Shown here piece after piece: positions 1 to 931 of a DNA stretch of 64,000 nucleotides. Positions within the stretch are counted from its first letter, which is position 1. The number at the start of each line of letters is the position of its first letter. Origin of the DNA: Thermoplasmatota archaeon (GTDB lineage: Archaea > Thermoplasmatota > Thermoplasmata > Thermoplasmatales > Thermoplasmataceae); NCBI GenBank assembly GCA_023381355.1, contig JAMCUL010000020.1:1-64000 (forward strand), in the 5' to 3' direction. Position numbers and translations under genes: made by a program. The notes beneath the pieces were generated by a model. That model made no database searches and was not told where the DNA came from. It saw only the letters and a program-made list of their open reading frames with translations.

Positions 1-406
1 TGTTCTTCAGCATGGTTATGATCTCTCCAAGTGATCTTCTGTACCTTACAAGTGATCTCAGATCATCAGAGTACCTGGATGGGATATGGACTTCAGGTAA
101 CTCTCTAAGTCTCAGAAGCTTTGCAAGCTTGTATGAATCCTCACGATCATTCTTCTTTGAAGTGCCGAATATGAGTGGAATCTTCACAGGATCCCCTATA
201 TGAACCAGAAATCCCATGTCCTTCAGTTTTCTGGCAATATACTTCCCTGATGTTGACACTTCCATGGCGATTTCAGGATTTACTGAAAGATATCTTTCCC
301 TGAACGCTGTCCACGAATCTTCTGTATTTGCAATCTCATACTGTTCCATGATGTTTCCATCGTCATTCATTTCCGTAATGTATACGGTACGTTTATGTAC
401 ATCCAT
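1..406 (-). CDS. IS110-family transposase (DEDD recombinase), N-terminal part, runs off the window
   Basis: Translated from the minus strand, this reads as the RuvC-like N-terminal domain of an IS110-family recombinase. It opens with YIGMDVHKRTVYITE (first Asp), continues through AMEVSTSGKYIARKL (Glu) and then KKNDREDSYKLAKLLRLREL (two Asp), giving the DEDD order of the family. About 135 residues are present and the frame is open at base 1, so the C-terminal serine domain lies outside the window. I place the start at the ATG at 406-404; a GTG at 427-425 in the same frame is an alternative, because a strong Shine-Dalgarno-like GGAGGTG (431-425) overlaps it. IS110 enzymes move circular intermediates using a non-coding bridge RNA, and the 150 bases upstream carry such a candidate. 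No frameshift is seen in the part present. Confidence 0.85.
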   Translation of the reverse strand, partial: MDVHKRTVYITEMNDDGNIMEQYEIANTEDSWTAFRERYLSVNPEIAMEVSTSGKYIARKLKDMGFLVHIGDPVKIPLIFGTSKKNDREDSYKLAKLLRLRELPEVHIPSRYSDDLRSLVRYRRSLGEIITMLKN

Positions 407-424
407 TCCAATATAGATTCCGAT

Positions 425-431
425 CACCTCC
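425..431 (-). promoter_or_regulatory. Shine-Dalgarno-like site before the IS110 gene
   Basis: GGAGGTG on the minus strand is a near-perfect match to the anti-Shine-Dalgarno sequence and lies at the 3' edge of the candidate bridge RNA. It overlaps a GTG codon, which leaves the exact start (GTG 427 or ATG 406) open. Confidence 0.4.
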
Positions 432-440
432 TGTGTGGTT

Positions 441-582
441 GGTGAGAGTCTAAAGTCGGAGATAACTCGACAGTCTTCTATTCACCCTTGTTTCAGGGTA
501 TTATGTCGAGACGAAGGGCAGCAAATCTGGAACGCGACCTCACAGGTCAAGGATACAGACTGCTGCCTCTCCGACTCTCACG
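441..582 (-). ncRNA. Candidate IS110 bridge RNA (two-loop guide RNA)
   Basis: The stretch directly upstream of the IS110 gene folds, on its strand, into a closed two-hairpin structure. An outer stem pairs 569-581 with 455-461 plus 442-447, with a 7-base bulge. The first hairpin (5' side of the RNA) has a 7-bp stem 561-567/517-523, a symmetric 12/12 internal loop (549-560 and 524-535) and a 5-bp cap 544-548/536-540. The second hairpin has a 7-bp stem 504-510/466-472, an asymmetric internal loop (500-503 and 473-483) and a 5-bp cap 495-499/484-488. Two stem-flanked internal loops upstream of the recombinase gene is the known layout of the IS110-group bridge RNA (target- and donor-binding loops, described for IS621). 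Strand 549-560 of the first loop is complementary to the istA flank at 639-650. The ends of the RNA are not defined by the sequence. Confidence 0.6.
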
Positions 583-931
583 CTAACATCGTCATTCCAA
601 CGTGGCCAAAAGAATTTTTTTCATGACATCTGTACACTGCCTGTATCCTTCGATCCTTTCGAAGTTCATGACAGTAATCCTTCAGTATTGTGTATCCTCC
701 ATCATATCCCAGTTTTCGAATCTCTTCGAGTATCCTTACAGCTGATAGATTGTATTTGTCTATGAATACCTTAATCTGTTCTCTGTAAGGATCAAGTTTT
801 GATTTTCTCTTCCTGTTCCTTTTAACCAATGATTCTGATTTCATATATTTCCTAACACTGTTCCTGGATATATTCAGTTCCCTGGCTATTGACTTAATGC
901 TCATTCCTTTCTCTCTCATATTGCGTATCAT
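578..931 (-). pseudogene. istA: IS21-family istA transposase, N-terminal fragment interrupted by IS110
   Basis: The N-terminal helix-turn-helix of an IS21 IstA transposase is readable: REKGMSIKSIARELNISRN, followed by LGYDGGYTILKDYCHELRK, a segment typical of the family. The start is the ATG at 931-929, preceded at 945-941 by GGAGG; an upstream in-frame ATG at 1036 lies inside the terminal repeats and is unlikely. Family resemblance ends after QAVYR (about 632); the last ~17 codons before the stop at 578 read into the IS110 left end. IstA is normally 400-500 residues and carries a DDE domain followed by istB, so about three quarters of the gene is missing here. I infer that the rest lies on the far side of the IS110 copy, left of the window. 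Confidence 0.75.

What the first reader, a model, noticed from the sequence alone, without database searches (positions are those of the whole stretch)
441..650. Candidate bridge RNA with one loop strand complementary to the DNA beside the insertion
The non-coding stretch upstream of the IS110 recombinase folds into an outer stem holding two hairpins, each with an internal loop, the layout known for IS110 bridge RNAs. On the RNA strand, loop segment 560-549 reads GUCUGUAUCCUU. The minus strand of the interrupted istA at 650-639 reads AAGGATACAGGC, giving 12 contiguous pairs (one G-U) with that loop, within about 10-20 bases of where istA homology stops. A guide loop matching its own insertion site is just what RNA-guided target choice predicts. 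The polarity relative to the published IS621 model and the exact element end are not settled here. This would be a bridge RNA from an acidophilic archaeon.
Basis: partly seen in the sequence, partly recalled or inferred. Interest (0 to 1): 0.9.

Follow-up and report, generated by a model that had tools for sequence, protein, structure and literature searches.

The report
Archaeal bridge RNA with swapped ends
An archaeal jumping gene carries a guide RNA that picks where it lands, but its two guide strands face the opposite ends of the element from the best-studied case, while a sister group in the same microbes keeps the usual arrangement.

Summary
The fold at 442-605 (minus strand) recurs across the order, with 20 of 44 pairs changed on both sides (0/500 shuffles). 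The element ends at core CT 630-631. Among 63 distinct copies, the 3' strand of the first loop (window 535-524), not the 5' strand, matches the DNA beside the RNA-bearing end (z=8.7). Donor loop strands co-vary with both element ends. This reverses IS621 relative to the recombinase gene (control), although RNA position and loop geometry are IS621-like. The element has 12-bp subterminal inverted repeats, an IS1111 trait. A sister subfamily in the same archaea has IS621 polarity, with termini exchanged between left and right. Best reading: the RNA+recombinase cassette was inverted between the subterminal repeats in one lineage.

The parts
2..427 (-). IS110 recombinase, N-terminal 142 aa; the gene runs off the contig at base 1
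   Evidence: ORF; Pfam DEDD_Tnp_IS110 E=2e-16; full-length relatives carry DEDD_Tnp_IS110 + Transposase_20 and NCBIfam transpos_IS110 at 232 bits
442..605 (-). predicted bridge RNA (about 164 nt): 5' stem-loop, outer stem, target-binding loop, donor-binding loop
   Evidence: fold z=-5.0; 20 of 44 pairs with both-side changes, 91.1% of cells paired, 0/500 shuffles; covariance model finds it across the order
579..604 (-). 5' stem-loop of the RNA
   Evidence: helix 1: 7 of 11 pairs with both-side changes
549..560 (-). 5' strand of target loop (GUCUGUAUCCUU, core CU near its end): guide that reads the RIGHT-end flank toward the core
   Evidence: g5 antisense against RE flank z=6.0, against LE flank z=1.0, n=20
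524..535 (-). 3' strand of target loop (GCGUUCCAGAUU, core AG): guide that reads the LEFT-end flank toward the core
   Evidence: positions -1..-4 match in 42, 46, 39, 27 of 63 copies against 18-24 by permutation
499..510 (-). 5' side of donor loop (CUCGACAUAAUA): GACAU matches the element's left end CATGACAT-CT
   Evidence: co-varies GACAU / GAUUUC / GACAC / GACCU with the left end across subgroups
473..484 (-). 3' side of donor loop (UGAAUAGAAGAC): AUAGAAG matches the element's right end CATAGA-AG
   Evidence: co-varies AUAGAAG / AUAGGAG with the right end
613..624 (.). left subterminal inverted repeat (AATTTTTTTCAT here; AACTTTTTTCAT in most copies); partner repeat at the right end is off the contig
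   Evidence: both repeats in complete copies such as L003, L043-L045, L047
630..631 (.). core dinucleotide CT (AG in recombinase sense) = end of the element
   Evidence: copies diverge beyond it; empty sites in istA
   Evidence: intact istA copies are collinear through the junction, GTGTAC-AG-GTATGAAAC

Best explanation
The stretch encodes the bridge RNA of an archaeal IS110-family element. Inferred mechanism: the RNA binds its recombinase, the first loop holds the target around a CT core, the second loop holds the joined element ends around the same core, and strands are exchanged at the core. Shown from sequence: the 5' target strand corresponds to the right-end flank and the 3' target strand to the left-end (RNA-bearing) flank, with donor guides arranged the same way, which is the opposite of IS621 relative to the recombinase gene. 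Shown: a sister subfamily has IS621 polarity, with the two outer termini exchanged. Inferred: in one lineage the RNA+recombinase cassette was inverted between the subterminal inverted repeats. Because the RNA reads only end-core-end and target-core-target, such an inversion would leave the element able to move.
For: Conserved, covarying fold. Four guide segments each match their DNA: left target flank, right target flank, both donor ends. Of eight guide/flank/sense combinations only the two of this model stand out. Core positions 3-4 also co-vary, AGAT/AGAA/AGGT. The IS621 control gives the opposite polarity with the same reading method. Sister subfamily: 5' strand against left flank, sense, p=0.0002, n=13; 3' strand antisense to right flank with matches of 7, 4, 5, 10, 5, 8 nt; right end AACTTCTTTCATGACAC and left end reading CATAGTAG outward, i.e. 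termini swapped. The two subfamilies are each monophyletic and sisters, 100/99. RNA motifs shared with IS621 (CCUUG in the 5' strand, AGAUU in the 3' strand) fix the RNA strand.
Against: No transcript, protein-RNA binding or transposition data. The window copy matches its own left flank at only 2 of 4 key positions and its right end is unassembled. Matches are short (about 4 nt left, 5-8 nt right) with frequent mismatches or one-base offsets. Copies are related, so permutation p-values are optimistic. The direction of the inversion is not established.
Confidence: 0.88

Rival explanations
1. One reading: loop strand 560-549 is the target guide and recognises the DNA at 639-650 next to its own insertion.
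For: 10-nt exact (12 with one G-U) match starting 8 bases past the core; one other copy (L058) has a comparable match; 2/63 own against 1/3848 mismatched pairs. Both matched half-sites include a core-like AG.
Against: No signal over the family (z=1.0; mean 4.46 against 4.04). Distance to the core differs between the two outliers (16 and 12 bp between core-like AG and true core). L005 has the same guides and no such match. The matched istA bases are conserved in uninterrupted IS21 copies.
Confidence: 0.05
2. The window element entered istA near its C-terminal end, at a site fitting its guides, and a later deletion of about 550 bp inside istA brought N-terminal istA DNA next to the left end, so the flank read by the first reader is not the original target. 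(This concerns the window copy only and is compatible with the best explanation.)
For: Contig C19 begins inside an IS110 right end followed by istA C-terminal DNA, CATAGA-AG-GATACATGAC, which fits rc(560-549)=AAGGATACAGAC. The empty site in another istA copy is ACC-AG-GATACATGAC. The window flank is istA N-terminal DNA.
Against: No read or contig joins C20 to C19; another right end (C9, position 248) also sits in istA, so the pairing of ends is a guess.
Confidence: 0.4
3. The two subfamilies reached opposite polarity without a cassette inversion, by separate change of guides and termini.
For: Termini and guides do change within each subfamily.
Against: It needs exchange of both termini and of all four guide roles; the termini are recognisably the same two sequences swapped.
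Confidence: 0.2
4. The fold is a cis-regulatory or attenuator structure of the recombinase mRNA and does not guide targeting.
For: It lies immediately upstream of the recombinase gene.
Against: Loop strands, not only stems, co-vary with flank DNA and with element ends.
Confidence: 0.02

Closest known systems
IS621 bridge RNA / IS110 group (PMC11208160, PMC11208158)
   Same: RNA upstream of the recombinase on the same strand; 5' stem-loop plus two internally looped hairpins; target loop first, donor loop second; CT core as read by the RNA; conserved CCUUG and AGAUU around the core positions
   Different: Guide strands correspond to the opposite ends of the element; 12-bp subterminal inverted repeats instead of 2-3 bp; recombinase distant (phmmer E=2e-6 over the C-terminal part) and in another branch
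IS1111 group seekRNA elements (PMC11187229)
   Same: Subterminal inverted repeats; top-strand-complementary guide 5' of the bottom-strand-complementary guide relative to the transposase orientation, as reported for IS1111
   Different: RNA is upstream, not downstream, of the recombinase gene; recombinase does not group with IS4321/IS5075
ISEc21 (IS110 family, upstream RNA; PMC11187229)
   Same: Upstream non-coding region; transposase of similar length (345-385 aa cluster)
   Different: Reported guide order is the reverse of the one found here; no sTIR reported
Sister subfamily in the same archaea (L240-L246; G000:C8 and C7, G016:C98, G031:C49, G042:C14, G115:C1)
   Same: Homologous RNA (model hits E 6e-11 to 6e-9), same gene order, same two terminal sequences and repeats
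   Different: Termini exchanged between left and right end; IS621 guide polarity

Membership tests
IS110 family (DEDD recombinase IS) | DEDD/RuvC-like N-terminal domain plus Transposase_20 C-terminal domain with G..P....SG motif | tested here: met
   Pfam PF01548 and PF02371 above cut-off; NCBIfam transpos_IS110 232 bits against 140; GLVPRQDQSG. These are for complete relatives; the window copy itself shows only the N-terminal domain
IS110 family bridge RNA | Structured RNA with two guide loops, conserved by covariation | tested here: met
IS110 family bridge RNA | Target loop strands match both sides of the insertion site | tested here: met
   left side z=8.7, n=63; right side z=6.0, n=20; weak in the window copy itself
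IS110 family bridge RNA | Donor loop strands match both element ends | tested here: met
   correlated changes in subgroups, inspected, no permutation test
IS110 family bridge RNA | RNA expressed and bound by the recombinase; directs recombination | not testable with these tools
   no transcriptome or assay
IS110 group (IS621-like) | RNA in the left end, upstream of the recombinase | tested here: met
IS110 group (IS621-like) | 5' loop strand matches left flank, 3' strand right flank | tested here: not met
   reversed; IS621 control as published
IS110 group (IS621-like) | No or very short subterminal inverted repeats | tested here: not met
   12-bp repeats
IS1111 group | Subterminal inverted repeats of 7-17 bp | tested here: met
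IS1111 group | RNA in the right end, downstream of the recombinase | tested here: not met
   RNA lies upstream
IS1111 group | Recombinase groups with IS1111 members (IS4321, IS5075) | tested here: not met
   separate branches
IS1111 group | Top-strand guide 5' of bottom-strand guide | tested here: met
   compared with the text of PMC11187229

The most novel reading that the evidence does not exclude
Bridge RNA polarity is not a fixed family trait but can switch when the RNA+recombinase cassette inverts between subterminal repeats. The two sister archaeal subfamilies are a natural before/after pair, and the same kind of rearrangement could underlie the different guide order of IS110 and IS1111 elements.
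Probability: 0.6. Interest if true: 0.7.

Novelty: new variant of a known kind. Interest (0 to 1): 0.6.

Why it matters
IS110 bridge RNAs are being developed as programmable recombination tools, and the published guide rules come from bacterial elements. This set gives a covariation-supported archaeal group in which guide-to-end assignment is reversed while RNA position is not, plus a sister group with the standard assignment. That separates RNA position, guide order and inverted repeats, which the papers read here describe as changing together. It also warns that targets predicted by assuming IS621 polarity would be assigned to the wrong flank. The proposed cassette inversion is directly testable.

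Tried and rejected
Rfam has no family for this RNA; the only hit near it is a sub-threshold RsmZ match, and the whole-window scan gives one tRNA. A first guide/flank test was off by one column and was redone. Opposite-strand RNA was considered: wobble counts lean only mildly to this strand (72 G-U against 50 A-C cells), but the core would then sit at the wrong end of each loop strand, and the IS621-like motifs would be lost. Homology to TIGR-Tas (NF052498, 28 bits, below cut-off) was not pursued. Attempts to read polarity in more distant relatives (Halobellus, ISAtu7, bacterial relatives) failed because the RNA model does not reach them, so the root of the polarity change is open. Literature searches found no archaeal bridge RNA with this arrangement, but the library lacks subscription papers and most preprints, and published figures could not be viewed.

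Full report
What was checked. The window (contig C20 of a 1.57-Mb, 24-contig, about 90% complete assembly) begins inside an IS110 recombinase read on the minus strand. The 12-base match and the fold are present at the stated coordinates.

Element end. Five copies in the same genome and about 60 in relatives share sequence up to ..TTTTTTCATGACAT-CT on the plus strand and diverge after it. In the window that CT is 630-631. Complete copies show the right end as ..AACTTTTTTCATAGA-AG. The shared AACTTTTTTCAT forms 12-bp subterminal inverted repeats. Empty sites support the boundary: intact istA copies read GTGTAC-AG-GTATGAAAC through the window junction, and for a right end on contig C19 the empty istA site reads ACC-AG-GATACATGAC.

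RNA. A 26-sequence alignment supports a 5' stem-loop, an outer stem and two looped hairpins: 91.1% of cells paired, 20 pairs with both-side changes, both beyond all 500 shuffles, and far above slid versions. The covariance model finds the RNA in 39 of 117 genomes of the order. Shuffle controls do not remove relatedness, but the slid controls and compensatory changes agree.

Which strand guides which flank. For 63 distinct insertions the 3' strand of the first loop matches the left flank in sense at -1, -2, -3, -4 in 42, 46, 39, 27 copies against 18, 24, 21, 18 by permutation; the fixed-register sum over -1..-6 has z=8.7. Three or four of the four key bases match in 31 of 63 own pairs against 9.9% of mismatched pairs. 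Bases 3-4 of the core region in the 3' strand also follow the first element bases (AGAT/AGAA/AGGT), so this strand seems to read across the flank-element junction (inference: useful for excision as well as insertion). Copies sharing guides are not fully independent, so p-values are optimistic.

Donor loop. The 5' side of the second loop reads GACAU, GAUUUC, GACAC or GACCU in step with left ends CATGACAT, ATGATTTC, ATGACAC, ATGACCT; the 3' side reads AUAGAAG or AUAGGAG in step with right ends CATAGAAG or CATAGGAG. This was inspected, not permuted.

Polarity. Using an E. coli IS621 copy as control, the 5' strand reads the left flank and the 3' strand is antisense to the right flank, as published (PMC11208160). 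Here both target and donor assignments are reversed relative to the recombinase gene, while loop geometry (flank then core along each strand) is the same. PMC11187229 reports that IS1111 and IS110 guide orders are reversed to each other, with RNA usually downstream and upstream respectively. The present group has the IS1111 order and repeats, but the IS110 RNA position, and its recombinase belongs with neither IS4321/IS5075 nor IS621.

Sister subfamily. Elements like the one at G000:C8 have a homologous RNA and the same order (left end, RNA, recombinase, right end), but the left end reads CATAGTAG outward and the right end CATGACAC: the two termini are exchanged. Their 5' strand matches the left flank in sense (p=0.0002, n=13) and their 3' strand the right flank antisense (matches of 5-10 nt in five of six), the IS621 polarity. 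Both subfamilies are monophyletic and sisters. The simplest account is inversion of the interior between the subterminal repeats in one of them. Which is ancestral is not shown.

The window copy itself. Its guides fit another copy with identical guides (L005: TTCC-AG, 4 of 4) better than its own flank (2 of 4). Its right flank is off the contig. The adjacent istA DNA contains a half-site that matches strand 560-549 over 10 nt. One other copy, a decayed one (L058), shows the same oddity, against 1 in 3848 mismatched pairs. The distances to the core differ (16 and 12 bp), and no mechanism is offered. A deletion inside istA, with C19 carrying the true right junction, would remove the puzzle for the window copy but is unproven.

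Verdict. Bridge RNA: strongly supported by sequence. New: reversed guide polarity with upstream RNA, and a sister group with swapped termini. Function remains inferred until RNA and recombination are measured.

Noticed in passing
L005 (G000:C12:1-1624) and L151 (G030:C56): An exonuclease III-like gene with an IS110 left end is 100% identical over 576 bases in two genomes assigned to different genera: recent transfer or misbinned contig. The C8 sister-type element is likewise identical in G030:C203.
   Followed up: no
L190/L191 (G000:C9:248-281): The right end AACTTTTTTCATAGAAG occurs twice in tandem before istA DNA, as if one element end had been the target of another insertion.
   Followed up: no
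L041 and L040 (G029:C3, G032:C58): The two subfamilies sit back to back, left end to left end, sharing a junction: one appears to have used the other's end as its target.
   Followed up: partly
L126, L128, L131-L133, L135, L136, L138 (genomes G024, G026, G028): Several RNA-bearing left ends with near-identical guides have no recognisable right end in the fetched stretch (up to about 2 kb); some may be remnants or elements lacking their recombinase.
   Followed up: no
L058 (G008:C1:701100-703900): A decayed copy whose left flank holds a 10-nt match to its own 5' guide strand, like the window copy; unexplained.
   Followed up: partly
L211 (Halobellus plasmid NZ_CP134948.1): A haloarchaeal IS110 element has 16-bp subterminal inverted repeats (ATGAAAATCCCGCACC) about 190-200 bp on either side of its transposase, so non-coding stretches of similar length at both ends.
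   Followed up: no
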